Below are positions 2,119 through 60,000 of a stretch of DNA of 64,000 bases, piece by piece. Both the position numbers and the translations under genes were made by a program. Location: assembly GCF_030915465.1 (NCBI RefSeq), contig NZ_CP133267.1, positions 2,448,501 through 2,512,500 on the forward strand, written 5' to 3'. Numbering within the stretch: the stretch's first letter is position 1; each line of letters starts with the position of its first letter. Source of the stretch: Neobacillus sp. PS3-34 (GTDB taxonomy: Bacteria; Bacillota; Bacilli; Bacillales; Cytobacillaceae). The notes under the pieces are model-generated. The model made no database searches and was not told the origin of the DNA. It worked only from the letters and a program-made list of their open reading frames with translations.

Positions 2119-2262
2119 GCGCGCGAGAAAATGAAAGGAATAGGCGAGATTATTGTAAAAACAGGCGAGAAAAATAGAAAAGCGAGCGAAATAATTTCGG
2201 AATCGCGCGAGAAAAATCAGAAAACCCGCGAGAAAAACGGCGAAGTCTGCGAGATTGCTCTT
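2119..2262. repeat. 21-bp phased array, GCGAG core (array C)
   Basis: A GCGAG core (one copy reads GCGAA) recurs at 2123, 2144, 2165, 2186, 2207, 2228 and 2249, exactly every 21 bp. The intervening bases are A-rich and poorly conserved. The same core and period occur at 25558-25805. The array lies between the pyrG terminator and the convergent ywjG. The open frame through it has no homology I recognise and simply reflects a period divisible by three. Confidence 0.8.
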
Positions 2263-2268
2263 AAAGAA

Positions 2269-2420
2269 AGGCTGTTTTCTAAAAGATTGTTGTTTTGTAA
2301 ATAGGTTTTTAAAAGCAAATCGTTGAAAAAGAAGTTGATTGGAGCGGAAAGCGAGCATAATGGAGTGGAAATTAACTACGCCTTAAATAGCAATAGCAAC
2401 AAAGTAAACGAAAACAGCCT
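2269..2420 (-). mobile_element. MITE-like element with 11-bp terminal inverted repeats
   Basis: The ends AGGCTGTTTTC (2269-2279) and GAAAACAGCCT (2410-2420) are perfect inverted repeats. The 152-bp interior is non-coding. On the minus strand it matches both flanks of the longer element at 11629-11912, lacking that copy's GC-rich centre. No transposase is present, so if mobile it would move in trans. Confidence 0.6.
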
Positions 2421-2440
2421 AAAGAAAAGAGACCTAGCCG

Positions 2441-11593: not shown

Positions 11594-11623
11594 CATGCTC
11601 TGAATTACAGGGCATGTTTTTTG
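11594..11623 (+). terminator. Terminator after the lipoprotein gene
   Basis: CATGCTCTG (11594-11602) pairs perfectly but for one G-U with CAGGGCATG (11608-11616), followed by six T residues. Confidence 0.8.
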
Positions 11624-11628
11624 TTTTT

Positions 11629-11912
11629 GGCTGTTTTCGTAAACTTTGTTGCTATTTAAGGAGTAGTTGATTTCCACTCCAGGATGCTCGCTTTCCGCGG
11701 GGCGGGCGGTGAGCCTCCTCGGCGCACAGCGCCTGTGGGGTCTCATCTGTCCCGCTGCTCCCGCCGGACGTTGAATCATCTCCCTGGAATCAACACCGCA
11801 CGAAGGAGATGCGTGAGCATTTTCGAGGAGCTCGCACCTTCCGCTCCACTCAACTTCTTTTTCAACGATTTGCTTTTAAAAACCTATTTGCAAAACAACA
11901 ATCTTTTAGAAA
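11629..11912 (+). mobile_element. GC-rich MITE-like repeat, long copy
   Basis: The left end GGCTGTTTTC matches the terminal repeat of the short copy at 2269-2420. Both outer segments are nearly identical to that copy in inverse orientation. The centre holds a GC-rich segment (CTTTCCGCGGGGCGGGCGG, GGTGAGCCTCCTCGGCGC and a matching GCTGCTCCCGC) that I recognise as a frequent intergenic repeat in Bacillus-type genomes. The right end stops at TTTTAGAAA (11912) without its terminal repeat. The missing AACAGCCT is found at 12712-12719, past the 52-bp array, suggesting one interrupted element. Confidence 0.6.
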
Positions 11913-11964
11913 GGCTGTTTTAGCAAGGATTGTTGTTTTCGGAACAAATTCTAATATTAGAGTT

Positions 11965-12641
11965 TGTTCCGAAATCCTCTGATTCAGACTCGATTACCTT
12001 TAATTTGATCAGCGTTGTCCGAATACCGCTCTGATTCGGACTCGATTACCTTTAATTTGATCAGCGTTGTCCGAATACCGCTCTGATTCGGACTCGGTTA
12101 CCCTTGATATGATCAACCCTGTCCGAATACCGCTCTGATTCGGACTCGATTACCTTTGATATGATCAACCCTGTCCGAATACCGCTCCGATTCGGACTCG
12201 AGTACCCTTAATTTGATCAACCCTGTCCGAATCCCGCTCCGATTCGGACTCGAGTACCCTTGATTTGATCAACCCTGTCCGAATCCCGCTCCGATTCGGA
12301 CTCGAGTACCCTTGATTTGATCAATCCTGTCCGAATCCCGCTCTGATTCGGACTCGAGTACCCTTGATTTGATCAACCCTGTCCGAATCCCGCTCTGATT
12401 CGGACTCGAGTACCCTTGATTTGATCGACCTTGTCCGAATCCCGCTCTTATTCGGACTCGAGTACCCTTGATTTGATCAACCCTGTCCGAATCCCGCTCT
12501 GATTCGGACTCGAGCACCCTTGATTTGATCGACCTTGTCCGAATCCCGCTCTGATTCGGACTCGAGTACCCTTGATTTGATCGACCTTGTCCGAATCCCG
12601 CTCTGATTCAATTCAAGTACCATTGAATACACCACTATTAA
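11965..12641. repeat. 52-bp tandem array A, 13 units
   Basis: Units begin at 11965 (degenerate) and then at 12017, 12069, 12121 and so on every 52 bp to 12589 (degenerate). Each unit carries GTCCGAAT, a 9-nt CCCGCTCTG-like loop and ATTCGGAC, a perfect 8-bp hairpin. It then has CTCGAGTACCCTTGATTTGA and TCAACCCT. The central units are most alike; the edges decay. Open frames through it shift with every unit because 52 is not divisible by three. It fills the gap before prfA. Confidence 0.9.
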
Positions 12642-12770
12642 TCTTGATTCGTTTCTAAGCGAGCACAAATTATTACAAAAACAACCAAGTCTACGATAAG
12701 AGTCTTTAGAAAACAGCCTTGTTTTTTAATAAAAGCTCAGCTGTATAAAAAATTTCCTCTTTAATTGGTT

Positions 12771-12799
12771 TTGACGGTACATTTCCCCTATACTATAAT
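12771..12799 (+). promoter_or_regulatory. prfA sigma-A promoter
   Basis: TTGACG (12771-12776), a 17-bp spacer and a perfect TATAAT (12794-12799), 36 bp before the prfA start. Confidence 0.8.
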
Positions 12800-12835
12800 T
12801 ATAATGTTATGGACTAAAAACTGAGGTGAATAACT

Positions 12836-13909
12836 GTGTTCGATCGTCTTCAATCTGTTGAAGATCGTTATGAAAAGTTAAATGAGCTTTTAAGCGATCC
12901 TGAAATTGTGAATGATACAAAAAAACTGCGAGAATTTTCTAAGGAACAATCAGATATATCCGATACAGTAATGGCGTATCGTGAATACAAGGATGTACGT
13001 GAACAGCTTTCAGATGCCAAAGCGATGCTTGAAGAAAAATTGGATTCTGAGATGCGCGAGATGGTGAAGGAAGAAGTAAACGAACTTCAAAGCCAGGTGG
13101 CAGAGCTAGAGGAGAAATTAAAAATCCTCCTCATTCCAAAGGATCCAAATGATGATAAGAACGTTATTTTTGAAATCCGCGGAGCGGCTGGCGGTGATGA
13201 AGCTGCATTATTCGCTGGCACTCTGTACCGTATGTACAGCCGCTATGCAGAAGCGCAGGGCTGGAAAACAGAAATCATTGATGCCAATGCCACTGGACTG
13301 GGCGGATTCAAGGAAATCAGCTTCATGATCACAGGTACAGGAGCATATTCAAAATTGAAATTCGAGAACGGGGCACACCGTGTTCAGCGCGTTCCGGAAA
13401 CAGAATCAAGCGGCAGGATTCACACTTCCACGGCAACCGTCGTGTGCTTGCCTGAAGCTGAGGATGTTGAGGTTGAAATCCACGATAAAGATATCCGTTT
13501 TGACGCATTTGCATCAAGCGGCGCCGGCGGACAAAGCGTAAATACGACGATGTCAGCGGTTCGTTTAACCCACATTCCAACTGGGATTGTCGTTTCCATC
13601 CAGGATGAGAAATCCCAGCACAAAAATAAGGACAAAGCCATGAAGGTATTGCGTGCCCGCGTTTACGATAAATTCCAGCAGGAAGCTCAGGCTGAATACG
13701 ATCAGGTGCGTAAATCTGCTGTTGGTACAGGTGACCGTTCTGAACGGATTCGTACTTACAACTTCCCGCAAAATCGTGTAACCGACCACCGTATCGGCTT
13801 AACGATCCAAAAGCTCGACCAGATTCTTGAAGGAAAGCTGGATGAAATCATCGATGCATTGATCGTAACAGATCAATCAGAAAGACTTGAGAATGCGTCC
13901 AATGAGTAA
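12836..13909 (+). CDS. prfA: Peptide chain release factor 1
   Basis: RF1 recognises UAA and UAG and triggers peptide release on the ribosome. The 357-aa length is normal. An N-terminal helical domain precedes the codon-recognition domain ([18 protein letters not shown]), and the catalytic GGQ is visible in [19 protein letters not shown]. The start is GTG 12836, after TGAGGTGA. The stop codon overlaps the ATG of prmC, whose product methylates the GGQ glutamine, so the two are co-translated. The frame is intact. Confidence 0.97.
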
Positions 13910-14769
13910 AAAAGTGTACGAAGCCCTCAACTGGGCTTCTTCTTTTAAAAGCGGCCAATCGGGAGGAACATGCGGGAGAATTGCTGCTGCGCCATTTTAC
14001 GGGAATGAGCCGGTCCATGCTGTTGGCAAGCCTTAGAGATGAACTTGAACCTGGGACAATAGAGGCTTTCGAAAAATCGGTCCACGACCATGCTGCCGGA
14101 AAGCCGGTACAGTATATCATCGGACATGAAGAGTTTTATGGCAGGCTTTTTCATGTCAATGAATCTGTCCTGATTCCAAGGCCGGAAACGGAAGAGCTGA
14201 TTATGGAGTCGATCAGGCGTATCGAGGAAAAGTTCGGATCCCGCCAGGAGTTGACGATGGTGGATGTCGGGACGGGCAGTGGTGCAATCGCCGTAACGAT
14301 GAAGCTTGAATGTCCGCAGTTAAAGGTGCTGGCATCGGATATCGCTCCTGATTCTCTGGAGCTGGCAAAAGAAAATGCAGACCGGCTTGGTGCTGAAATC
14401 AATTTTGTCCAGGGAGATTTGCTTCAGCCTTTCATCGAAAAAGGTGTGTTGTTTGATCTCGTCCTTTCGAATCCCCCTTATATTCCGATCGGCGATATGA
14501 CGGGTATGTCTGAGGTCGTAACGGAGCATGAGCCGCATCGTGCACTATTTGCGGGTGAGGATGGGCTTGATTTTTACAGAAGGTTCATGAAGGAGCTGCC
14601 GCTTGTTTTAAAGCCCGATGCATTTGTTGGGTTTGAAATCGGTGCCGGCCAGGGTGAAGCGGTCGCTGAATTGCTGTCAAATACATTCCCACATGCGAAA
14701 GTGGATATTATAAATGATATAAATGGAAAGGACCGGATGGTATTTGCCGATCTGTCCTCTGCAGGATAA
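13902..14769 (+). CDS. prmC: Release factor glutamine methyltransferase (frameshifted as read)
   Basis: PrmC methylates the Gln of the GGQ loop of RF1 and RF2 using S-adenosylmethionine. The start ATG 13902 ([15 protein letters not shown]) overlaps the prfA stop. The frame then breaks near GGCC 13953-13956, and the rest continues in another frame as [17 protein letters not shown]. Two missing G residues (AGCGGGGCCAAT read as AGCGGCCAAT) would restore a product aligning in length with B. subtilis PrmC. Downstream are SAM motif [14 protein letters not shown] and the signature SNPPYIP. I annotate one intact gene with a sequence error. Confidence 0.88.
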
Positions 14770-14801
14770 AGAACCTCGGATTCATTTCGGGGTTCTTTTT
14801 T
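14768..14801 (+). terminator. prmC terminator
   Basis: AAGAACC pairs with GGTTCTT and is followed by T residues. Confidence 0.75.
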
Positions 14802-14844
14802 ATGCTTGCTAAAAAGGGTTTTTAGCGGGTGTTTAAAAGGGTGC

Positions 14845-14912
14845 GGTCGATATTTTTGGGACCCGGTTGATAAATGTTTCTGTACGGTTGATAAATCATA
14901 AATTTCGGTTGA
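14845..14912. repeat. 21-bp phased array F, GGTTGATAAAT core
   Basis: GGTCGATA, GGTTGATA, GGTTGATA and GGTTGAAA start at 14845, 14865, 14886 and 14907 (steps 20, 21, 21). The core resembles arrays at 19192-19285 and 59675-59995. A hairpin with a T run, CTAGTTCTT/AAGAAATCTAG at 14938-14967, follows and may be a second terminator. Confidence 0.6.
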
Positions 14913-15029
14913 AAACCCGGTGAAAAGAGTCACGAGCCTAGTTCTTCAAAAAGAAATCTAGTTTTTTATTTTTAATAGTTTAAGATTCTGGCATTTTGTC
15001 CACAATGAGTTAGTGAAGGGACGGTGTCG

Positions 15030-15934
15030 GTGTTGAGAAGTAAAACGATTGTATGGGCATATCTTGTGATTCTATCATTAGGGACAATAATGAGTTTATA
15101 TATACCAAAAAATGAAGTGGCTGCGAAGGAGGAAATTGTGATTCCTGGTGAAGCCATCAGGCTGAGAATCCTTGCAAATAGTGATAGTGGCTCAGACCAG
15201 GCGTTGAAACGACTGGTACGCGACAAGGTAAATGAGAATATCACCGTTTGGGTAAAGGATCTCACTTCCATTGACGAAGCAAGGAAATTGATTCATTCCA
15301 AGCTTCCTGAAATCCAGCAAATTGCAGAAGGTGTAGTGGAACAGCAGCATTCTGATCAGTCTGTAAACGTAAAGTTCGGCAAGGTACAGTTTCCAACTAA
15401 GCTGTATGGTGAATTCCTTTATCCCGCAGGAGAATATGAAGCCATCCTGATTACACTTGGAGAGGGGAAAGGGGCAAATTGGTGGTGCGTGCTTTACCCG
15501 CCGCTCTGCTTCCTTGATTTTTCAAGCGGAGTAGCTGTAAGCCAGGGATTTGATGGGGAAAAAAAGGCACAGCGCGAGGAAACAAAGCCAGAGCGGAAAG
15601 AACAGCGCGAGGAAACAAAGCCAGAGCGGAAAGATCAACAAGTGGAAGCAAAGCCAGAGCAAGAACTACAGATTTCTGATCGTAAGCAGGAAGATGAGGT
15701 TTCACAGTTGGAGCAGAGAAATGATAGCGATGAAGAGCCGCCGCAAGCTCCAGCAATGTTACTGATATACCATCTGTAGAAAGCAGTAAGGTATATGCTC
15801 AACAGGAAGTACAAGAAAAAGCAGAGCAAAAGGAAAGTGGCCATAAGCATTCCAAGGTTTACGCAGAAGAAGACGAGAAACCGGTTGAAGTGAAGTTTTT
15901 TGTGGTCGAGATGTGGAAAAAGATGTTTAACTAA
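15030..15934 (+). CDS. spoIIR: Stage II sporulation protein R (frameshifted as read)
   Basis: SpoIIR is made in the forespore under sigma-F and secreted to activate SpoIIGA, which matures pro-sigma-E in the mother cell. An N-terminal hydrophobic segment is followed by the conserved AIRLRILANSDS, KFPTKLYGEFLYPAGEYEA and GANWWCVLYPPLCFLDFSSG blocks. The C-terminal part has unusual near-identical EETKPERKE repeats. The frame breaks at 15737-15743; restoring one G (CCGGCCGC read as CCGCCGC) links it to the expected end EVKFFVVEMWKKMFN. Start GTG 15030 has better spacing from GAAGGG than GTG 15024. Confidence 0.88.
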
Positions 15935-16024
15935 CTTAAACGGATTTAATTTTACAAAAGTTATGAAATGTCTACATATTATATTACATTCGGTGTACAA
16001 GTCGATTACAGAACCCTTACAACG

Positions 16025-16049
16025 GTTTTAATTTCCTTAAAGAGGATAT
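16025..16049 (+). promoter_or_regulatory. Candidate sigma-B promoter of the KGG-repeat gene
   Basis: GTTTTA (16025-16030), a 13-bp spacer and GGATAT (16044-16049) differ from the sigma-B consensus GTTTAA/GGGTAT at one base each. B. subtilis gsiB is sigma-B dependent, which fits. Confidence 0.45.
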
Positions 16050-16092
16050 TTATAGGGAGTAACGTCAAAAATCTTCTAAGGAGTGATCTTAA

Positions 16093-16545
16093 ATGGCTAA
16101 TAATGATGATAATAATAACAATAAGATGTCTCGCGAGGAAAGAGGACGTAAGGGCGGAGAAACCACAAGCCGGAAACATGACAGAGAATTCTATCAGGAA
16201 ATACGCCGCAAAGGCGGAAAAGCGACAGCTCAAAAACATGATAAGGAATTCTATCAGGAGATTGGGCGCAAAGGCGGGGAATCGACATCCAAAAAACATG
16301 ATAAGGAATTCTATCAGGAAATTGGTCGTAAGGGTGGCGAAGCTACAGCTGAGAACCATGATAAGGATTTTTATCAGGAAATTGGCCGCAAAGGTGGAGA
16401 AACAACATCTGAAAAACATGATAAGGAATTCTATCAGGAAATCGGGCGTAAAGGCGGCGAAGCCACGCGCGATAAACACGGCGATGGATTCTATGAAGAA
16501 ATTGGTGAAAAGGGCGGGGAATCGAGAAATCGTAGAAACGATTGA
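16093..16545 (+). CDS. GsiB-like stress protein with KGG repeats
   Basis: This 150-aa, highly charged, hydrophilic protein is built from about six 20-residue repeats of the type FYQEIGRKGGE followed by ATxxKHDKE. This is the KGG/LEA group 1-like repeat of B. subtilis GsiB and plant Em proteins, linked to desiccation and general stress. There are no Cys, no membrane segments and no enzymatic motif. AAGGAGTG precedes the ATG. It has its own candidate sigma-B promoter and terminator, so it is an independent unit between spoIIR and ywlB. The reverse-frame open frames over it are repeats of its own periodicity. Confidence 0.85.
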   Translation: MANNDDNNNNKMSREERGRKGGETTSRKHDREFYQEIRRKGGKATAQKHDKEFYQEIGRKGGESTSKKHDKEFYQEIGRKGGEATAENHDKDFYQEIGRKGGETTSEKHDKEFYQEIGRKGGEATRDKHGDGFYEEIGEKGGESRNRRND

Positions 16546-16582
16546 TCCCGCAGTATAACGGTATGTGACCTTCCTAACCCAG

Positions 16583-16609
16583 GGCAGCCACGGATGCTGT
16601 CTTTTTTTT
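16583..16609 (+). terminator. Terminator after the KGG-repeat gene
   Basis: GGCAGC pairs (one G-U) with GCTGTC and is followed by eight T residues. Confidence 0.65.
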
Positions 16610-16634
16610 GCTCTTTGATTTTCTTTTTTGCAGG

Positions 16635-16673
16635 TTCTACTTCTAGTAAATCTTCATATTAATAGAAGTAGAA
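16635..16673. promoter_or_regulatory. Perfect 11-bp inverted repeat before ywlB
   Basis: TTCTACTTCTA (16635-16645) and TAGAAGTAGAA (16663-16673) are perfect inverted repeats with a 17-bp AT-rich gap, ending about 10 bp before the ribosome-binding site GGGGAGG. It could be an operator or an mRNA hairpin. Confidence 0.5.
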
Positions 16674-16696
16674 ATAGCAAACGGGGAGGAATGGAA

Positions 16697-17143
16697 ATGC
16701 AGGCATTGATTCGAAGTGGGGAAGAAAGAGATTTTGCGAGAGTAATAGATTTTTTAACGAAAGCAGGATTGGGTACGGAGGGGCTTTCAGAAGAGGTGCT
16801 TCCTTATTTTTTATTGATGGAAAATAGTAGTGGCGAAATTAAAGGTCTTCTCGGCATTGAAGCCCTCGGCGAGGACGGCCTTTTGCGTTCCCTTGCGATT
16901 ACACCTGATTTAGGGGAAAGAGACATTATCCTTTTATTTGAACAAATGATGGTTCTGGCTAAAAATAAAAAACTTTCACGGGTATTTTTAGCTACAAATA
17001 AAATCCAGGCTCTCGACTTTTTTCATGTGCTCGGTTTTAAGGAGACTGAAATAGACGATTTGCCGGAAAAGTTTTTTGAATCTAAACATATTCAGCATAT
17101 TTTTAATGTGGATAACTCAATATTTTTAAAATTTTCACTTTGA
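16697..17143 (+). CDS. ywlB: YwlB, GNAT-type N-acetyltransferase-like protein
   Basis: This 148-aa cytoplasmic protein has the GNAT layout: MQALIRSGEERDFARVIDFL at the start, a central acceptor strand (GLLGIEALGEDGLLRSLAITPDL) and a final strand-helix (RVFLATNKIQALDFFHVLGF). The usual acetyl-CoA loop is poorly conserved, so activity is uncertain. The substrate is unknown. Start ATG 16697 is 7 bp from GGGGAGG; the ATG at 16691 is too close. Position and length match B. subtilis ywlB. Its last codons already contain the first DnaA box of the cluster that follows. Confidence 0.8.
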   Translation: MQALIRSGEERDFARVIDFLTKAGLGTEGLSEEVLPYFLLMENSSGEIKGLLGIEALGEDGLLRSLAITPDLGERDIILLFEQMMVLAKNKKLSRVFLATNKIQALDFFHVLGFKETEIDDLPEKFFESKHIQHIFNVDNSIFLKFSL

Positions 17144-17376
17144 TTGTGGGTATATCCACAAAATTATCCACATTTTCTAATTAGTTATACACAATTTGTG
17201 GATAAAGCTTGTTTTTAAAGCATCCTTCTTTTATACTTTCAAACGTACTAAGTGAAAAATAAGCGATTTTATATGCCTAAAATAATTTTTTTACGTTTGA
17301 AATAAAGGTGGATAAATATGAAGACAAACATTTGGTCAGTGGATAATTCTGTGGATAATTTATTAAATAATCCACA
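17107..17376. promoter_or_regulatory. DnaA-box cluster at ywlB-ywlC
   Basis: Nine 9-mers match the DnaA box in 270 bp. Exact TTATCCACA (either strand) occurs at 17107, 17164, 17197 and 17350, and TTATACACA at 17185. Copies with one mismatch occur at 17152, 17307, 17338 and 17368. The cluster spans the end of ywlB, the intergenic gap and the first codons of ywlC. I recall ywlC as a DnaA-bound locus in B. subtilis, consistent with a conserved regulatory or titration site. Confidence 0.8.
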
Positions 17377-18359
17377 AATAGAAAATGCGTCTGCTCTTCT
17401 ATCCCAAAATGAAGTCGTGGCATTACCGACTGAAACCGTTTACGGGCTGGGAGGAAATGCAGAAAGCGATGAGGCGGTCAGGAAAATTTTTGAAGCAAAG
17501 GGCAGGCCGAGTGACAATCCGTTGATTATCCATATTGCGGAGAGGGAACAACTGGCTCGTTTCGTAGAGGAAATCCCTGAAAAAGCATCCATATTAATGG
17601 ACCGATTCTGCCTGCCCGCTTACTATTATTTTTAAAAAGAAGGAAGGCATCTTGTCAGACAAAGCGACAGCTGGACTTGCGACGATTGCCGTCCGGATGC
17701 CTGACCACCCGGTTGCACTGGCTATTTTGAAAAAATGCGGTCTGCCGATAGCAGCACCAAGTGCAAACAGTTCGGGAAAGCCAAGCCCGACAACGGCCAA
17801 GCATGTTATGGACGACTTGAATGGAAAAATTGCCGGGATTATTGACGGCGGGCGAACAGGGGTAGGAGTCGAATCAACTGTGGTCGATTGTACGGAATCC
17901 ATTCCGGTCATCTTAAGGCCAGGCGGCATCACCAAGGAACAGCTTGAAGAAGTGGTCGGTGAGGTTGAAACTGATCCGGCGCTTCTTAATGAAGAAATGC
18001 GGCCGAAGTCTCCCGGCATGAAATACCGCCACTATTCTCCGAATGCTCCGCTCTATTTAGTGAAGGGGAGTAAGAACTTCTTACAGGCGCTCATTGATGA
18101 GAAAAGAAGCGAGGGCTTGCGGGTCGGTGTATTGACTACAGAAGAATACCGGACAGACATCCAGGCTGACGTGGTATTGGCCTGCGGGAGAAGAGAAGCG
18201 TTGGAGACGGTTGCCAGCTCATTATACGAAACGCTCCGCGCCTTTAATGATGAAAATGTCGATGTGATTTACAGTGAAATGTTTCCGTCCAGTGGTGTTG
18301 GGCATGCAATTATGAACCGTCTGTTGAAGGCAGCGGGCAATAAAGTAATAAGTGAATAA
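17318..18359 (+). CDS. ywlC: L-threonylcarbamoyladenylate synthase (YwlC/Sua5; frameshifted as read)
   Basis: Makes threonylcarbamoyl-AMP from Thr, bicarbonate and ATP for the t6A37 modification of ANN-decoding tRNAs. YrdC/Sua5 domain motifs include VVALPTETVYGLGGNA, KGRPSDNPLIIHI and PSANSSGKPSPTTA; a C-terminal Sua5 domain follows PGMKYRHYSPNAPLYLV. The frame breaks at 17609-17617. Two GGCC sites each appear to have lost one G (TGGCCTGGCCCG read as TGCCTGCCCG); restoring them gives the conserved WPGPLTIIL. Total length then is about 347 aa, as in B. subtilis. ATG 17318 follows AAAGGTGG and lies inside a DnaA-box cluster. Confidence 0.92.
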
Positions 18360-18369
18360 GTTGAATAAT

Positions 18370-18405
18370 GGCAGGCACTTCCTTTCGGGAGGTGCCGGTT
18401 TTTTT
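18370..18405 (+). terminator. ywlC terminator
   Basis: GGCACTTCC pairs with GGAGGTGCC around TTTCG, followed by a T run. Confidence 0.85.
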
Positions 18406-18545
18406 AAAAGTAATCCGTTTAAGATACTTGAGCCATGCGTTTTAATACCAGGAAAGGGCAGCTGGTGACTTTTATCCAATTGGGCTTCTAAATCAATTCA
18501 GACGAGCATAAGCTGAATTAGCAAGTCCAAGGGGGCGAGAATCGA

Positions 18546-19099
18546 ATGTCAGCAGTGCTAGGGGAATTATTCACGCTATTATTAATGGCGTTTGCATTAG
18601 GAATGGATGCATTTTCGGTTCGCCTGGGGATGGGAATGTATAAGCTGAGGCTCAGGCAAATATTTAAGATTGGCCTCACTATCGGGTTGTTCCATGTCTG
18701 GATGCCCCTGCTGGGAATGATGGCAGGGAAATTTTTATCGGAAAAATTCGGTACCTTTGCCGGCTATCTTGGCGGGCTGCTTCTCATCCTTCTTGGAATT
18801 CAGATGATCTGGTCGAGCCTTAAAAAAGAGGAAGCAAGTGTCATCACGCCAGTCGGATTTGGGTTGCTGATTTTTGCGTTGAGCGTCAGCCTCGACAGCT
18901 TTTCTGTCGGACTGACACTGGGGATATACGGAGCAAGGACAGTCATGACGATTTTCTGCTTCGGAATTGCCGCTACCATTTTGACATGGCCGGCTTATTG
19001 GCGGGAAAAAAAGTGCAAGGCTGGCTTGGATCATATAGCGAAGCACTGGGCGGAAGCATTCTCCTCGCGTTCGGCTTAAAGCTGCTGCTTCCTTTTTGA
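18546..19099 (+). CDS. mntP: Manganese efflux pump MntP (frameshifted as read)
   Basis: Six-helix inner membrane exporter of Mn(II). The visible part has the paired repeat [12 protein letters not shown] and [16 protein letters not shown], each with the family's membrane Asp residues. The frame breaks at GGCC 18987-18990. Adding one G (TGGGCC) restores [22 protein letters not shown] and a final helix ending LLLPF at 19099, for about 184 aa. Start ATG 18546 follows AAGGGGGCG. B. subtilis ywlD occupies the same position. Confidence 0.88.
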
Positions 19100-19116
19100 A
19101 TGGAAAAATACCGGGA

Positions 19117-19146
19117 AAGCTGTTCCGTGGGGAATGGCTTTTTTGC
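19117..19146 (+). terminator. mntP terminator
   Basis: AAGCTGTTCC and GGAATGGCTT form an imperfect stem (two mismatches) before a T run. Confidence 0.55.
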
Positions 19147-19187
19147 TTTAGAAGATGATTGAGGTGGGAGGTCATTTGGCAGGGGCT

Positions 19188-19285
19188 TGTCGGTATCTTC
19201 GTCGCATCGGTCGGTATTTTTAAAAAAGAGGTGGGTATTTTTATAAATTGGTTCGGTAAATCATGAAAATAGGTTGGTAAATACA
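19188..19285. repeat. 21-bp phased array G, GGTCGGTA core
   Basis: GGTA cores within TCGGTAT, TGGGTAT, TTCGGTAAA and TTGGTAAA lie at 19192, 19213, 19234, 19255 and 19276, exactly 21 bp apart. It belongs to the same family as array E (59675-59995). Confidence 0.75.
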
Positions 19286-19421
19286 TAGAGTTAGTATGAG
19301 TATAATTGTGAAAGTCGAATTTTGCTGAAATTTTAAAAAAAATCTAAACTAAACAGCAGTTCTGTTCGATATTAAAGATATGGTCCTGCATCTCTTTTCA
19401 AAAAACGTTAATATCCACGTA

Positions 19422-19449
19422 TTGGAATATGCGGAATATGTCTTATAAT
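19422..19449 (+). promoter_or_regulatory. ywlE promoter
   Basis: TTGGAA (19422-19427), 16-bp spacer, TATAAT (19444-19449); the AAGGAGG site of ywlE follows 10 bp later. Confidence 0.6.
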
Positions 19450-19472
19450 GTATAAAAAGGAGGCAGACCACT

Positions 19473-19937
19473 ATGCAACGTGTTTTGTTTGTTTGTACAG
19501 GTAATACGTGCCGAAGTCCGATGGCGGAAGTAATTTTGAAAAATAAGAACATAGCGGGAATAGAAGTGAAGTCTGCGGGAGTTTATGCTGTAAATGGAAG
19601 TGATGCCTCAGCGAACGCCAAGCAGGTATGGAAGGAAAATGCGATCCAGCATGAACACCGTTCGAATTCTGTTACGGAAGAGCTGATGAACTGGGCATCA
19701 ATCATTTTAACGATGACGGTGTCACATAAGGCGGCACTGCTTCACAGTTATCCGGAGGCTGCTGGCAAGACGTTTACTCTAAAAGAATTTATTGGGGAAA
19801 AAGTGAATGCAGATGTAATCGATCCTTTCGGTGGAGATTTAGGAATATACCGCAGCACCTATCAGGAGCTTGAATCCTTAATCGACCTGGCGATTGATCG
19901 AATCTATAAAGAAAAACAATCACATCAGGGGGACTAA
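19473..19937 (+). CDS. ywlE: Protein-arginine phosphatase YwlE
   Basis: Low-molecular-weight phosphatase fold, 154 aa. The P-loop [12 protein letters not shown] at residues 8-19 carries the nucleophile Cys, with Thr in the third position typical of YwlE-type arginine phosphatases. The general-acid loop is [10 protein letters not shown] near residue 117. In B. subtilis it reverses McsB arginine phosphorylation and so affects CtsR and Clp-dependent proteolysis. AAGGAGG precedes the ATG. The stop codon is one base before the ATG of the next gene, so the two are cotranscribed. Confidence 0.93.
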
Positions 19938-19938
19938 G

Positions 19939-21228
19939 ATGAAGGAGAAAAGGAAGTACAAGTTTGGATTAAGAAAGAAGCTGGTGTTTTTTACGACGAT
20001 TCTTGCGCTTATTACTTATACGACTAGTGCTGTTTTTATTGAAGTTGTATATCCGTATGTAAAGGGAAGCATCAGCCAAATGCTCTTTATTGTCATTACG
20101 CTGGCTTTAGGGATTATGTGGTCAGGTGTGTTAGCCTTTTTTGCAGCACGCTTCATTGTGAAACCGCTTCAACGTCTTCAAACAGTTGCTTTAAAAGCGG
20201 CCGAAGGAGACATCAGTGAGGATGTAGTTCTTTCTAAATCTGATGATGAAATACGATCACTTGGCGAGGCATTTAATCATATGCTGGGCAGCATTAGGGA
20301 TATGGTCTATAAAATCGATGAGAACTTCATTGAAACAAATGATAAGGTGATTAACATTTCGGATCGATCAGGATGCGCTTCCCAGCAGGCGGAAAGCATT
20401 TCGAGAACAATCAGTGAAATATCTTTGGGTGCCGATAATTCAGCAGCTTCAATCCAAACAACAGTTGAATCGGTGGAAGAAGTGATTAAAATAGCTGAAG
20501 AAGTGCAGGAGAAAGCCCAAAATGCCGAAACGATTTCAAAGGAATTGGTGGAGGAGCTGCACGTTTCGAGAGAAGTCATTCAATCCCTTGTTTCAGGAAT
20601 AGAGCTTCTTGCACAGGACAATCGTACATCTTTGAAAACGGTCAAGCATCTAGAAGAAAATGCAGCTAAAGTCGAACAAATTATCCAGCTTGTTGGACAA
20701 ATTGCCTCCCAGACAAATCTGCTTGCACTGAATGCATCGATTGAAGCTGCCCGCGCTGGCGAACATGGAAAGGGCTTTGCCGTGGTCGCGGAGGAAGTCC
20801 GTAAGCTTGCGGATGAAAGTGGGAAAGCGGTTCAGGGAATTTCCGAGCTTATCAAAAACATTCAATCTGAGGTTCAAAATGTTGTAAAACAGATTGCGGT
20901 CCAGGTTGATACAGCCAACGAAGAAGCAAAAAAAGGTACAAAGACGAATGAAGCAATTGAAGAAATGACAGAAACCATAAATGATATGGCCGGTATGGTC
21001 CAATCCATTACTGTGCTCGTCGACCGTCAGATGGACAGCATCCGCCATACGGCAACACAATCGCAGGAGGTTGCTGCGATTGCTGAGGAAACATCTGCAG
21101 GTGCGCAGGAAGTAGCATCTGCCACAATGGAACAGGCGGGCGTCATTGAAGGCGTCGAACAGCTAGCGATGGACCTAAAGGAACAGGCCGCCAAGCTTAA
21201 AGAAACCATTACAAGGTTTAAATTATAA
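19939..21228 (+). CDS. Methyl-accepting chemotaxis-type transducer
   Basis: This 429-aa protein has two predicted membrane segments close together (about residues 14-35 and 48-72) with almost no extracytoplasmic sensor. A HAMP domain ([22 protein letters not shown]) and a long coiled-coil signalling domain follow. The hairpin tip reads [44 protein letters not shown], the CheA/CheW contact region. The lack of a sensor domain suggests it detects an intracellular or membrane signal; the ligand is unknown. Start ATG 19939 follows AGGGGGA. It directly follows ywlE, an arrangement I do not recall from B. subtilis. Confidence 0.9.
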
Positions 21229-21292
21229 TAAATTTGGGCTCTCTTCGATGTGAATATCGGGTATGAGGTGCTTAACAATTCAAAGGCCAATA

Positions 21293-21330
21293 AAAATGAC
21301 GTATGGATATGCATACGTCATTTTCTTATT
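21293..21330 (+). terminator. Terminator after the transducer gene
   Basis: AAATGACGTATG pairs with CATACGTCATTT, followed by a T-rich stretch. Confidence 0.8.
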
Positions 21331-21509
21331 GAATAAAGGATGTTTAGTCTTTTGGGTGTGCTATATGACAGCCTGAAGATATGAAAAATACTTGTTGTAC
21401 AATAAAAAGCCCATGCCAAATGCCGGGTCAAAATCATTACTACTTTGGAGGACGCAATCTATTTGATGAACTTTTTATACTCTATTTCTCTATAGAACAA
21501 AAATAAATG

Positions 21510-22000
21510 ACCTCTATTGGACAAAACCTTGGACATGAGCGGAGAAAATGTCTAATAAGAGGGTCCTATTGGACAAAACCTTGGGTATGAGTGGAGAAAA
21601 TGTCTAATAAGAGGGTCCTATTGGACAAAAAATTGGACATGATCGGTGAAAATGTCTAATAAGAGGTCCCTATTGGACAAAACCTTGGACATGAGCGGAG
21701 AAAATGTCTAATAAGAGGGCCCTATTGGACAAAACCTTGGGTATGAGCAGTGAAAATGTCTAATAAGAGGGTCCTATTGGACAAAACCATGGACATGATC
21801 GGTGAAAATGTCTAATAGAGGTCCCTATTAGACAAAACCTTGGACATGAGTGGAGAAAATGTCTAATAAAAGGGGCCAATTGGACACAACCTTGGACATG
21901 GACGGTGAAAGTGTCTAATAGGAGGGTTCTATTGGACAAAACCTTGGGTATGAGCAGTGTAAATGTCTAATAAAAGAGCTCTATTAGACAAAACCTCCTC
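21510..22000. repeat. 52-bp tandem array B, 10 units
   Basis: ATTGGACA begins at 21516, 21568, 21620, 21672, 21724 and 21776, then at 21827, 21879, 21931 and 21983. All steps are 52 bp except one of 51. Each unit contains TTGGACA twice (13 bp apart) and then TGTCTAATAAGAGG; TTGGACAT can pair with ATGTCTAA (one G-U) across an 11-nt loop. The sequence is unrelated to array A although the period is identical. The rest of the gap (22001-22186) shows nothing beyond the rpiB ribosome-binding site. Confidence 0.9.
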
Positions 22001-22199
22001 GTCGTCTCGTTTTATACTTGTCGCCCCTTAGCTTAGAGTCGCAAATAAATTAGGTGCGGTCCGGTCCATACGTTGCTAAACGGACGCTTCCGCTATTCGT
22101 ATACCTTTATAAATTTCATGGATTGTGTCAAAATAAAGTGGGACATATAAGTGATTTTTTAAAAAGTTTATCTTTGAAAAATTATAGGAGGTTCAGCGG

Positions 22200-22646
22200 A
22201 TGAAGGTAGCATTGGCTTCAGACCATGGCGGAATTAATATCAGAAAAGAAATCGCGAGTTTAATGGATGAATTGGGAATTGAATACGAAGATTTTGGCTG
22301 TGATTGCAGTACGTCTGTAGATTACCCGGATTATGCGCTGCCAGTTGCTGAAAAGGTGGCAAACGGTGAATTCGACCGCGGCATCTTGATTTGCGGAACC
22401 GGCATTGGAATGAGCATTGCGGCTAATAAAGTAAAAGGCATCCGCTGTGCGCTCGTGCATGATACATTCAGTGCAAAGGCAACGCGCCAGCACAATGACA
22501 GCAATATTTTAGCGATGGGTGAGCGGGTCATCGGACCGGGACTTGCGAGAGATATTGCACAAATCTGGCTGACCGGCGAATACGAAGGCGGCCGCCACGC
22601 AAACCGAATTGGAAAGATTTCAGACTACGAAAATAAGCATCTTTAA
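22200..22646 (+). CDS. rpiB: Ribose-5-phosphate isomerase B (YwlF)
   Basis: Interconverts ribose 5-phosphate and ribulose 5-phosphate. The 148-aa product has the RpiB/LacAB fold motifs MKVALASDHGG, the catalytic Cys in GILICGTGIGMSIAANKVKGIRCAL, HDTFSAKATRQHND and the end region EGGRHANRIGKI. AGGAGG precedes the ATG. It is followed after 18 bp by the in-frame coding region of ywlG, so the two are probably cotranscribed, as in B. subtilis. Confidence 0.95.
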   Translation: MKVALASDHGGINIRKEIASLMDELGIEYEDFGCDCSTSVDYPDYALPVAEKVANGEFDRGILICGTGIGMSIAANKVKGIRCALVHDTFSAKATRQHNDSNILAMGERVIGPGLARDIAQIWLTGEYEGGRHANRIGKISDYENKHL

Positions 22647-35917: not shown

Positions 35918-36424
35918 AATTTTATTTTTTTTACTATAGCACCCGTAAGTTGTACAAGTTCATTATACGCTAAAGCGAGTTTGATAAATAAGCGGAGAAA
36001 TTCCTCTTAATTAGGAAAAAGCTCTGAAAATAGCTTAAATAGACGGAAAGATTCCGACTATTGACTGAAAAAACGTGAAAATGGTTAATTTTGCTTTGCT
36101 TAATCGGAAAACCTCCGCTTATATACCCCGAACTGAGCTCTATTCTGCTGTCTAACCGAAAAATCTCCGCTTATTTTAAATAGCACTGGTTACTCAATTA
36201 AGGATAAGACTTCTTACTAAATCACAAATAATTCACACACCCTCCAATAATTATTTCATACCCTGTGATTTACTATCTGAATTAAGACAAAACTAAAGTA
36301 AACCCGTTAGCCTGAGCTGTGGGACTTTTTTTTGAGAATTTTTTGTCAGAATATGTTTAGTAGCCGACCAAGCGGGTATTTCCACTATTGTAAAGATATG
36401 GTTTAGATGGAAAATAAAAAATCT
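35918..36424. repeat. Intergenic region with degenerate ~52-bp repeats (array H)
   Basis: CGGAGAAATTCC (35993), CGGAAAGATTCCG (36044), CGGAAAACCTCCGC (36105) and CCGAAAAATCTCCGC (36156) recur at steps of about 51, 61 and 52 bp, each with a small CGGA/TCCG inverted pair and a following TTAT or TTATTT. It looks like a decayed member of the 52-bp class. From 36190 to 36424 I see no gene; the segment should hold the promoter of the riboswitch transcript, but I cannot place it convincingly. Confidence 0.5.
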
Positions 36425-36516
36425 TGAAAACGGCAAACCATTCGAAAGGGTGGGACGCAAAGTCTAGGAGTCTAAAGCTGTTACGATTGAAGCAGCCATG
36501 ATCGTCCAACTGCCAG
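36425..36516 (+). promoter_or_regulatory. Cyclic di-GMP-I riboswitch (GEMM-I)
   Basis: The aptamer shows the class signature: GGCAAACC (36432-36439), a P2 hairpin closed by a GAAA tetraloop, GGGACGCAAAG (36452-36462), the P3 arm, and a closing TGCC. The GGC at 36432-36434 can pair with GCC at 36512-36514 to form P1. That same 3' strand is the 5' arm of the terminator immediately downstream. Ligand binding should therefore hold P1 and stop the terminator forming, an ON switch; this direction is inference. Confidence 0.88.
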
Positions 36517-36543
36517 GAGTGCTATTATTCTGGCAGTTTTTTT
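36510..36543 (+). terminator. Riboswitch expression-platform terminator
   Basis: CTGCCAG (36510-36516) pairs with CTGGCAG (36530-36536), followed by seven T residues. It overlaps the 3' strand of aptamer P1. Confidence 0.88.
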
Positions 36544-41151: not shown

Positions 41152-41390
41152 GTTGTTTTTGGAAGTAGATCTAGGAGAGATAAAATCATTAATAACTCCT
41201 TTAATACGATACGTTTTCCTTCATATTATTTTCCCACTGTGTAGTACATTTCTTGTTCAACTAAACTGCCCTGCTAACAAGAAAAACAACACCATTCATT
41301 AACAAAGTTATTTTAGAAATAACAAAAAATGGATATAGAAAAAAGTGGGAAATGATTTTATAATAAAGTAGTAGGTTAAACTTTTCAACG
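41152..41390 (+). other. Gap between the HpaB-like gene and the second riboswitch
   Basis: AT-rich, no gene and no clear terminator. TATAATAAAG at 41359-41368 could be the -10 of the riboswitch transcript, but I cannot match a good -35. Confidence 0.35.
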
Positions 41391-41480
41391 AAAATGGCAA
41401 ACCTATTGAAAAATAGGGACGCAAAGCTATAGGCCTTCCTCTTTTAAGAAGAGTGGCAGCCTAGCTACCGAAAGGGGAGT
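41391..41480 (+). promoter_or_regulatory. Second cyclic di-GMP-I riboswitch
   Basis: GGCAAACC (41396-41403), a P2 hairpin CCTATTGAAAAATAGG, GGGACGCAAAGC (41416-41427), a P3 arm with CCTCTTTTAAGAAGAG and a GGCAGCCTAGC closing strand fit the GEMM-I pattern. Here no terminator follows. The aptamer ends against AAAGGGGAG (41471-41479), the ribosome-binding site of the next gene, suggesting translational rather than transcriptional control. The direction of control is not clear from the sequence. Confidence 0.82.
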
Positions 41481-59602: not shown

Positions 59603-60000
59603 ATAGAGTATGAGGGGGAGCCAGGCTGGTGCCTGGCTTTTTGGATTGAAAGAGGTCAGGTTTATGAGAAGGTTGGTATTTTGGGAAAAGTGGTCGGTAA
59701 ATAAGGGGAAAGGTTTGGTATTTTTAAAAAAGTGGTGGGTAAATCGAACGAACTGGTTGGTAAATCATTTAAAGTGGTCGGTAAACGGAAAAATTACCAA
59801 GGATCAATTACCTGAGCCAGGCTCCGGCCTGGCTTTTTGTATCAAGGGTCTTCCTAAAAGAGGCATCTGAAGGAAGAAGGTTGGTATTGAAGAAAAAGTG
59901 GTTGGTAAAAAGCAATAAGAGGTCGGTATTTTATTAAAAGTGGAGGGTAAATGAAAAGTTCCCGTCGGTAAATTCCTCATTTAGGTCGGTAACTAAAAAT
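59603..60000. repeat. 21-bp phased array E, GGTCGGTAAAT core, in spoIID-NERD gap
   Basis: A GGTA core, usually in GGTTGGTATT or GGTCGGTAAA, lies at 59675, 59696, 59717, 59738, 59759 and 59780. After a gap it resumes at 59883, 59904, 59925, 59946, 59967 and 59988. Every step within a block is exactly 21 bp. The inserted 59800-59875 segment carries two copies of GAGCCAGGCT..GCCTGGCTTTTT hairpins, one of which (59810-59840) is a likely terminator; a similar one at 59620-59640 follows spoIID. The remaining bases up to 60100 show no other feature. Confidence 0.85.

What the first reader, a model, noticed from the sequence alone, without database searches (positions are those of the whole stretch)
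11965..22000. Two unrelated tandem arrays share an exact 52-bp period
Array A (11965-12641, 13 units) and array B (21510-22000, 10 units) have no common sequence. Yet both repeat at 52 bp with a single 1-bp exception, and both carry an 8-bp hairpin per unit with a 9- to 11-nt loop (GTCCGAAT/ATTCGGAC; TTGGACAT/ATGTCTAA). 52 bp equals five helical turns, so each unit presents the same face. Edge units are degenerate while central ones are nearly identical, as expected from unequal exchange. The shared period with unrelated sequence suggests selection or a copying mechanism that fixes length rather than sequence. I know no named family with these properties.
Basis: partly seen in the sequence, partly recalled or inferred. 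Interest (0 to 1): 0.8.

Follow-up and report, generated by a model that had tools for sequence, protein, structure and literature searches.

The report
Fixed-length 52-bp palindrome arrays in Bacilli
The two repeat arrays belong to one large family of tandem DNA repeats scattered between genes in many Bacillus relatives, in which short mirror-image sites recur almost exactly every 52 bases although the DNA between them is unrelated; what keeps that length fixed is unknown and can be tested.

Summary
The arrays are real: A (TRF 11977-12609) and B (21514-21996) both repeat at 52 bp. They are not unrelated. Both units share one frame: a 25-bp palindrome GTCnnnnn-N9-n'n'n'n'n'GAC plus a 27-bp spacer, free in sequence but not in length. 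This genome holds at least 38 such arrays. Indels are three- to four-fold depleted in array spacers relative to the same elements' non-repeated ends. Both arrays are absent at orthologous loci of congeners. Array A lies in a MITE-like element behind a terminator; minimal copies hold one or two units, much like BOX elements. RNA-level tests (G.U versus A.C asymmetry, sense versus antisense folding) gave no consistent signal; RAYT transposases do not track the arrays; plasmid and viral collections gave no hit; nine literature searches listed no description. Best reading: protein-binding DNA sites held on one helical face, spread as BOX-like cargo and amplified in place. No binding protein is known, so function is inferred. 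New variant of a known kind.

The parts
11595..11628 (+). terminator-like hairpin and T-run behind the upstream ORF; the insertion starts right behind it
   Evidence: sequence read by eye; a similar hairpin is in congener G003 without the insertion
11629..11912 (.). MITE-like repeat (GTTGATTTCCACTCCAGG type) whose first ~27 bp resemble the A element's leader; abuts it
   Evidence: several copies at 91-95% over about 284-295 bp, and more partial ones, in the fetched parts of this genome; end similarity read by eye
11913..11989 (+). leader of the A element (left end, TIR-like, with a degenerate first palindrome)
   Evidence: 20 copies over 75% length in fetched parts of this genome, 85-97% identity
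11977..12609 (+). array A: 12.2 copies of a 52-bp unit, stem type GTCCGAAT/ATTCGGAC; 11 palindromes between 12017 and 12561
12607..12702 (+). trailer of the A element (aligned part of a 116-bp consensus), right end, TIR-like
   Evidence: 76% to consensus; 8 copies over 75% length in fetched parts of this genome
11629..12758 (.). stretch absent at the orthologous locus of congeners G002 and G003 (7-22 bp there)
21296..21321 (+). B leader hairpin ATGACGTATG...CATACGTCAT followed by T-rich DNA (terminator-like)
   Evidence: 5 copies of this form in 1.72 Mb of fetched sequence (part of it fetched because it holds arrays), all 54-227 bp from a 52-bp array
21514..21996 (+). array B: 9.3 copies of a 52-bp unit, stem type GTCTAATA/TATTGGAC; 9 palindromes between 21550 and 21989; one 51-bp step
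21231..22100 (.). stretch replaced by about 48 bp at the orthologous locus of congener G003
12836..13909 (+). prfA (peptide chain release factor 1), neighbour of array A
   Evidence: TIGR00019, E 8e-169
22200..22646 (+). rpiB (ribose-5-phosphate isomerase B), neighbour of array B
   Evidence: TIGR01120, E 2.5e-51

Best explanation
Both arrays are members of one family of chromosomal arrays whose unit is a palindromic DNA site (GTC...GAC arms, 9-bp centre) repeated head to tail every 52 bp. Shown: one frame, free spacer sequence, nearly fixed spacer length, insertion-like gain, avoidance of divergent promoters, rarity of the palindrome outside arrays. Inferred: a dimeric host protein binds each palindrome, neighbouring dimers interact along one face of the helix, and this selects for steps of a whole number of turns (52, rarely 62/63 or 94). 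The bound array then acts as a multivalent block or topological boundary behind a gene's terminator. Arrays move as cargo of BOX-like, MITE-like elements (seen for type A) and grow or shrink in place by recombination or slippage (inferred from copies with 1, 2 and up to 18 units).
For: One ungapped frame in 27 arrays with compensating stem changes (74 double-change cells against 22 in shuffles and at most 15 when slid; pieces had been picked for pairing). Period-neutral scan (37-67 allowed): steps 52 x515, 51 x59, 53 x24, 62 x6, 50 x2, 48 x1, 40 x1. Substitutions:indels 535:9 in this genome's array spacers and 1093:26 in 84 arrays of named genomes, against 241:18 in leader plus trailer of the A element, Fisher p 2e-4 and 5e-4. 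Other recurrent steps lie near whole turns: 62 in Macrococcoides, TRF rows of 52, 63 and 115 in G057, 52/94 in GTCTTCAT arrays. In this genome 197 palindromes of the AATA/GAAT kind lie in arrays and 2 outside. No consistent RNA-strand signal: G.U over A.C in 34 arrays, reverse in 28, tie in 47; tandem-gene sense strand folds better in 23 of 46. 0 hits in plasmids and viral contigs. Copies with 1 unit (L411) and 2 units (L122) inside the same leader and trailer.
Against: No binding protein was found or predicted. Steps of 40, 48, 92, 99, 100 and 117 and 47 (L407) do not fit whole turns, and some arrays run uniformly at 51 or 53, so phasing is suggestive only. Named loci hold 23 palindromes outside arrays against 709 inside, more than at neighbouring gaps (8 and 5). 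Stem compensation can also arise without selection, by template switching at quasi-palindromes (recalled). Placement 3' of genes would also follow from tolerance of parasitic insertions, as argued for BOX in PMC3049150 (passages). Orientation with the upstream gene suggests a link to transcription that a symmetric site does not need. My first indel estimate (870:9) counted spacers outside arrays; the mended, weaker ratio lowered this confidence from 0.42 to 0.40.
Confidence: 0.4

Rival explanations
1. BOX/BIME-like selfish repeats with no host function: the element's own transposase or a hairpin-processing enzyme handles the palindromes, and the 52-bp spacing is what that enzyme needs.
For: Type A lies in a MITE-like frame with 20 leader copies; gain at both loci relative to relatives; patchy distribution even within a genus (G001 0, G002 49, G003 23 matches); arrays avoid divergent promoters (29 convergent: 4 divergent, background 134: 121).
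Against: Among 56 array flanks from 9 groups of loci in other genomes, the 4 similar pairs all lie within one locus, so no common carrier was seen there; few palindromes outside arrays; Y1/RAYT presence does not follow the arrays.
Confidence: 0.31
2. RNA-level device: a run of hairpins at mRNA 3' ends that stops read-through, stabilises messages or titrates an RNA-binding protein.
For: Array sense matches the 5' gene in 24 of 29 arrays by automatic ORF calls, 27 of 29 after reading flanks by eye, and 37 of 48 in named genomes; many arrays follow terminator-like hairpins (by eye); window arrays fold strongly (z -8.9 for A, -5.4 for B sense, -1.5 for B antisense); one array fills the gap between two co-directional ORFs (2439341).
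Against: No excess of G.U over A.C outside this genome (22 arrays v 23). In this genome the array-sense strand is the more stable in only 8 of 29. G057 keeps unpaired arm positions unit after unit. RNA gives no reason for a fixed 52-nt step.
Confidence: 0.17
3. Ordinary minisatellites, with the equal length a chance or plain inheritance without constraint.
For: Edge decay and homogenised centres are what unequal exchange gives; all arrays may descend from one ancestral 52-bp unit.
Against: Period distribution and indel depletion despite turnover of spacer sequence.
Confidence: 0.06

Closest known systems
BOX elements of streptococci (boxA - n x boxB - boxC)
   Same: Short left and right end modules around a variable number of tandem units; enriched between convergent genes; probably non-autonomous mobile (PMC3049150, passages seen)
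   Different: Here a conserved palindrome frame with free spacer sequence and a 52-bp step across genera; in the other genomes looked at, no common end modules were seen
BIME / REP (repetitive extragenic palindromes) with RAYT transposases
   Same: Clusters of regularly spaced imperfect palindromes outside genes, stems kept complementary; BIME-2 binds gyrase (PMC2817692, passages seen)
   Different: No GTAG tag seen, head-to-tail and not alternating, inter-repeat length nearly constant, whereas Stenotrophomonas inter-REP segments vary substantially in length (PMC2817692); RAYT not linked
MITEs such as bcr1 of the Bacillus cereus group
   Same: Type A sits in a short element with TIR-like ends, many copies and empty sites in congeners
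   Different: MITEs are not defined by an internal palindrome array; bcr1 itself was not compared here (named from PMC3733652, passages)
CRISPR arrays
   Same: Palindromic repeat plus spacer of similar length (general features recalled)
   Different: Spacers are themselves repeated within an array; cas genes were not looked for

Membership tests
REP/BIME with RAYT | GTAG or CGTC tag beside the palindrome | tested here: not met
   alignment A1: stem base is GTC...GAC, spacers variable, no tag column
REP/BIME with RAYT | cognate Y1/RAYT transposase present with the repeats | tested here: not met
   PF01797 absent in array-rich G003, G005, G006; 5-17 matches in R1-negative G010, G028, G038, G047, G050
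REP/BIME with RAYT | alternating repeat orientation | tested here: not met
   spacers run head to tail in the consensus units
BOX element | end modules around a variable number of tandem units | tested here: met
   type A only: leader + 1 to 18 units + trailer
BOX element | sequence relation to boxA/B/C | not tested
   no BOX sequence was compared
MITE | inverted terminal repeats | tested here: inconclusive
   leader start and reversed trailer end look alike by eye; no score computed
MITE | multiple copies and empty sites | tested here: met
   20 leader copies; empty site in G002 and G003
MITE | target-site duplication | tested here: inconclusive
   insertion in a T-run makes a short T duplication undecidable
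CRISPR | unique spacers | tested here: not met
   spacers repeat within arrays
curated structured RNA family (Rfam 15) | match to a model | tested here: not met
   no gathering-level match over either array; only sub-threshold eukaryotic RNA models with E 0.24 or more nearby
ordinary minisatellite | period free to vary between arrays | tested here: not met

The most novel reading that the evidence does not exclude
Many Bacilli carry dozens of chromosomal, helically phased arrays of a palindromic site for a still unknown, conserved DNA-binding protein: a dispersed chromosome-organising or insulating system in which spacing, not sequence, is the conserved trait and arms co-evolve with the protein.
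Probability: 0.32. Interest if true: 0.85.

Novelty: new variant of a known kind. Interest (0 to 1): 0.6.

Why it matters
If the phasing reading holds, these arrays would be a clear case in bacteria of selection on the spacing of DNA sites rather than their sequence, and a handle for finding an unknown nucleoid or insulator protein in Bacillaceae. If they are purely selfish, they are a BOX-like family with an unusually strict geometry and a useful typing marker. Either way, a pull-down or spacing-change experiment separates the readings.

Tried and rejected
RNA function: wobble asymmetry looked strong at stem position 4 (TG 94 against CA 23 cells pooled over 109 oriented arrays of 160) but is reversed at the other positions, and by array it is 34 to 28; folding gave sense more stable in 8 of 29 (this genome, p 0.013 against), 30 of 45 (named, A-rich sense, p 0.07), 5 of 8 and 23 of 46 (tandem gene sense), with 55 of 89 in flank controls. 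RAYT as driver: rejected. Phage or plasmid carriage: none (with B and A against plasmids; 55 with the AATA/GAAT pattern against viral contigs). Replication direction as the cause of orientation: 24 of 29 agree after re-orienting array 737k (dnaA taken as origin), but four of the five that disagree still follow the 5' gene. A crowding of arrays near the presumed terminus was seen by eye and not tested. Phylum-wide search with model R1: 0 of 298 other genomes, but only 16 candidates per genome were scored, so this is weak.

Biases and mends: one search looked for palindromes in steps of 52 +-3 and favoured GTC/GAC; of 31 candidate places 29 gave chains of three or more, one a single palindrome, one none. 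Two of the 29 were left out of alignment A1. (25 chains at 52, at most 1 elsewhere apart from 51/53 and 102-105) includes loci fetched by similarity to A and B; less biased figures are. One search tried centre lengths 8-10 only. In one search, 20 of 106 arrays overlapped a long ORF by the script's rule and 80 had neighbours on both sides. The Sedimentibacter SX930 units are nearly those of Trichococcus, and 'Chryseobacterium sp. ISL-80' units are Bacillaceae-like; both records may be mislabelled. One search used 870 spacer substitutions, which included spacers beyond array ends; one search recounted 535. One search was also run with 28 of 30 for gene co-orientation; the right counts are 24 of 29 by ORF calls and 27 of 29 by eye. 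In one search minus-strand loci were placed wrongly; one search corrected it. Searches ended in script errors after partial output; what they printed was used.

Literature searches: (listings); no paper on a 52-bp family was listed. Only passages of PMC2817692, PMC3049150 and PMC3733652 were read.
Full report
Observation. TRF finds array A at 11977-12609 (12.2 copies of 52 bp, 94% matches) and array B at 21514-21996 (9.3 copies, 84%). Self-comparison of A peaks at 52, 104, 156, 208, 260; that of B at 52, 104, 156 and, because of a 51-bp step, at 155, 207, 259. A lies between a 145-aa ORF behind thymidine kinase and prfA; B between a chemotaxis-receptor-like gene and rpiB.

One family, not two. 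In register, the A unit is GTCCGAAT-N9-ATTCGGAC plus 27 bp, the B unit GTCTAATA-N9-TATTGGAC plus 27 bp. Queries with A and B found many more places in the 4.9-Mb chromosome (75 and 48 matches). I took an even sample of 80 x 20 kb. With the window it holds 21 non-coding TRF arrays of score 150 or more: 13 at 52 bp, one each at 104 and 146, four with long periods (148, 156, 310, 347) whose self-comparison peaks at multiples of 21, and two others (45, 377). The 146 array has peaks at 52 and 94. 29 arrays read in detail carry palindromes in steps of 52 (+-3 searched), with stem types GAAT, AATA and others such as TCAA, TTCA, GTCA/ATCA and TTAA. Nine further 52-bp arrays raise the count to at least 38. 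An ungapped alignment of 27 arrays has GTC and GAC invariant (partly by choice of pieces) and co-varying inner pairs. A script detecting 8-bp-arm palindromes in step found 25 chains at 52 and at most one at unrelated periods, on sequence partly chosen by similarity.

Other genomes. A covariance model (R1) matches 38 of 61 genomes including this one, in several families of the order, patchily: 0, 49 and 23 matches in three congeners. Fetched relatives' arrays mostly run at 52 with other stems; exceptions are 51 (L172), 53 (L157) and a 52/63/115 pattern (L154). Palindrome steps in those loci: 52 x108, 51 x4, 53 x4. In an even 400-kb sample of one relative, G030, 9 of 14 non-coding TRF rows have periods of 51-52 or multiples; in R1-negative G025 none of 3 does. 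A named-genome scan that allowed any period from 37 to 67 returned 119 stretches, 80 with titles shown: Neobacillus, Mesobacillus, Cytobacillus, Robertmurraya, Virgibacillus, Aquibacillus, Sporosarcina, Peribacillus, Trichococcus and others. Steps: 52 x515, 51 x59, 53 x24, 62 x6, and one or two each of 40, 48 and 50; centre length 9 in 754 of 790 (8-10 tried). Macrococcoides has a 62-bp version. Consensus units of many genera show GTCCGA or GTCCAA arms while spacers look unrelated. A stem-blind pattern gave 290 forward matches in six genomes against 0 backwards; G041 mixes AATA and TTCAT stems in neighbouring units without changing the step (listing capped).

Length is constrained. Between palindromes exactly 52 bp apart, this genome's array spacers differ from array consensus at 535 of 5427 sites, and 9 of 216 steps are not multiples of 52; 84 arrays of named genomes give 1093 substitutions and 26 of 535 steps off the array's own mode. 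28 copies of leader and trailer of the A element show 241 substitutions and 18 gaps. Odds ratios 0.23 and 0.32, Fisher p 2e-4 and 5e-4. Larger indels would escape the array counts, and the yardstick comes from one element in one genome. Recurrent departures (62, 63, 94) are close to whole turns, but single departures are not all so.

Origin and mobility. 30 loci upstream of prfA and 30 upstream of rpiB were read, this genome's included; apart from it, one (G012, prfA) had a 52-bp array, of another sequence. The stretch 11629-12758 is missing in G002 and G003; 21231-22100 is replaced by 48 bp in G003. Array A has a 77-bp leader with 20 copies and a 116-bp trailer with 8 longer matches; minimal copies carry one unit (L411) or two (L122), and the same frame can hold GTCTTCAT arrays with steps of 52 and 94, once 47. 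Next to it lies a MITE-like repeat whose first bases resemble the leader's. Some B-type arrays follow a conserved terminator-like hairpin (five copies of one form, all next to arrays). Among 56 array flanks of other genomes no similarity between different loci was seen.

Place and strand. In named genomes 80 of 106 arrays had neighbours on both sides: convergent 29, tandem 47, divergent 4, against 134, 522 and 121 for all ORF pairs; convergent against divergent p 6e-5. 20 of the 106 overlap a long ORF by the script's rule. The same skew is reported for BOX and taken as tolerance of parasites (PMC3049150, passages), so it does not prove function. Array sense agrees with the 5' gene in 24 of 29 arrays here by ORF calls, 27 of 29 by reading flanks, and 37 of 48 elsewhere.

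DNA or RNA. The window's arrays fold well as RNA, as a palindrome array would. Strand-specific tests give no consistent signal: G.U exceeds A.C in 34 arrays, the reverse in 28, with 47 ties, and 22 v 23 without this genome; the sense strand is not regularly the more stable. Palindromes of the main kinds are rare outside arrays: 2 against 197 in this genome's fetched parts, 23 against 709 in named loci. This favours a DNA-level, multivalent role, by inference. No protein was identified; RAYT was tested and rejected.

Comparison. By mode of spread type A works like a BOX element; by site structure it resembles BIMEs, which bind gyrase and other proteins (PMC2817692, passages). It fails REP/BIME membership on tag, orientation and RAYT, and differs in its constant linker. 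No Rfam family matches. Nine searches of open papers listed no 52-bp family; subscription papers are not covered.

Verdict. A real, widespread and, as far as these searches reach, undescribed repeat family with a strict 52-bp geometry; mechanism open, with protein-bound phased DNA sites the most likely and a selfish BOX-like origin close behind.

Noticed in passing
genome C1:1599289, 1960626, 2595398-2596597, 2833579; window 2165-2237 and 59671-59785: A second class of arrays with about 21-bp spacing (motifs such as TTATCTACACT or AATCTCGCG plus about 10 free bases); 20-21-bp arrays also sit upstream of prfA or rpiB in several relatives.
   Followed up: partly
window 2276-2423 and 11629-11912: Copies of a frequent MITE-like repeat (GTTGATTTCCACTCCAGG...GCGGGGCGGGCGG) with ends like those of the A element.
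   Followed up: partly
genome C1:2439341-2440043: A 13-unit array fills the gap between two co-directional ORFs, starting near the stop codon of the first; the upstream flank reads like a thiolase end (by eye).
   Followed up: no
L280, L304, L305, L313 and L321, L329, L339: Records labelled Sedimentibacter sp. SX930 and Chryseobacterium sp. ISL-80 carry Trichococcus-like and Bacillaceae-like array units; perhaps misnamed or mixed assemblies.
   Followed up: no
window 36422-36517 and 41387-41473: Two c-di-GMP-I riboswitches about 5 kb apart (RF01051 and RF03167).
   Followed up: no
G012, prfA upstream (L227): A different 52-bp array without an obvious GTC...GAC palindrome (by eye) upstream of prfA, where array A lies here: a possible case of the same period with another motif.
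   Followed up: no
G057 contig C13: Arrays keep non-complementary arms (GTCCAATAG / CTCATGGAC) unit after unit, so half-sites can be conserved without full hairpin pairing.
   Followed up: partly
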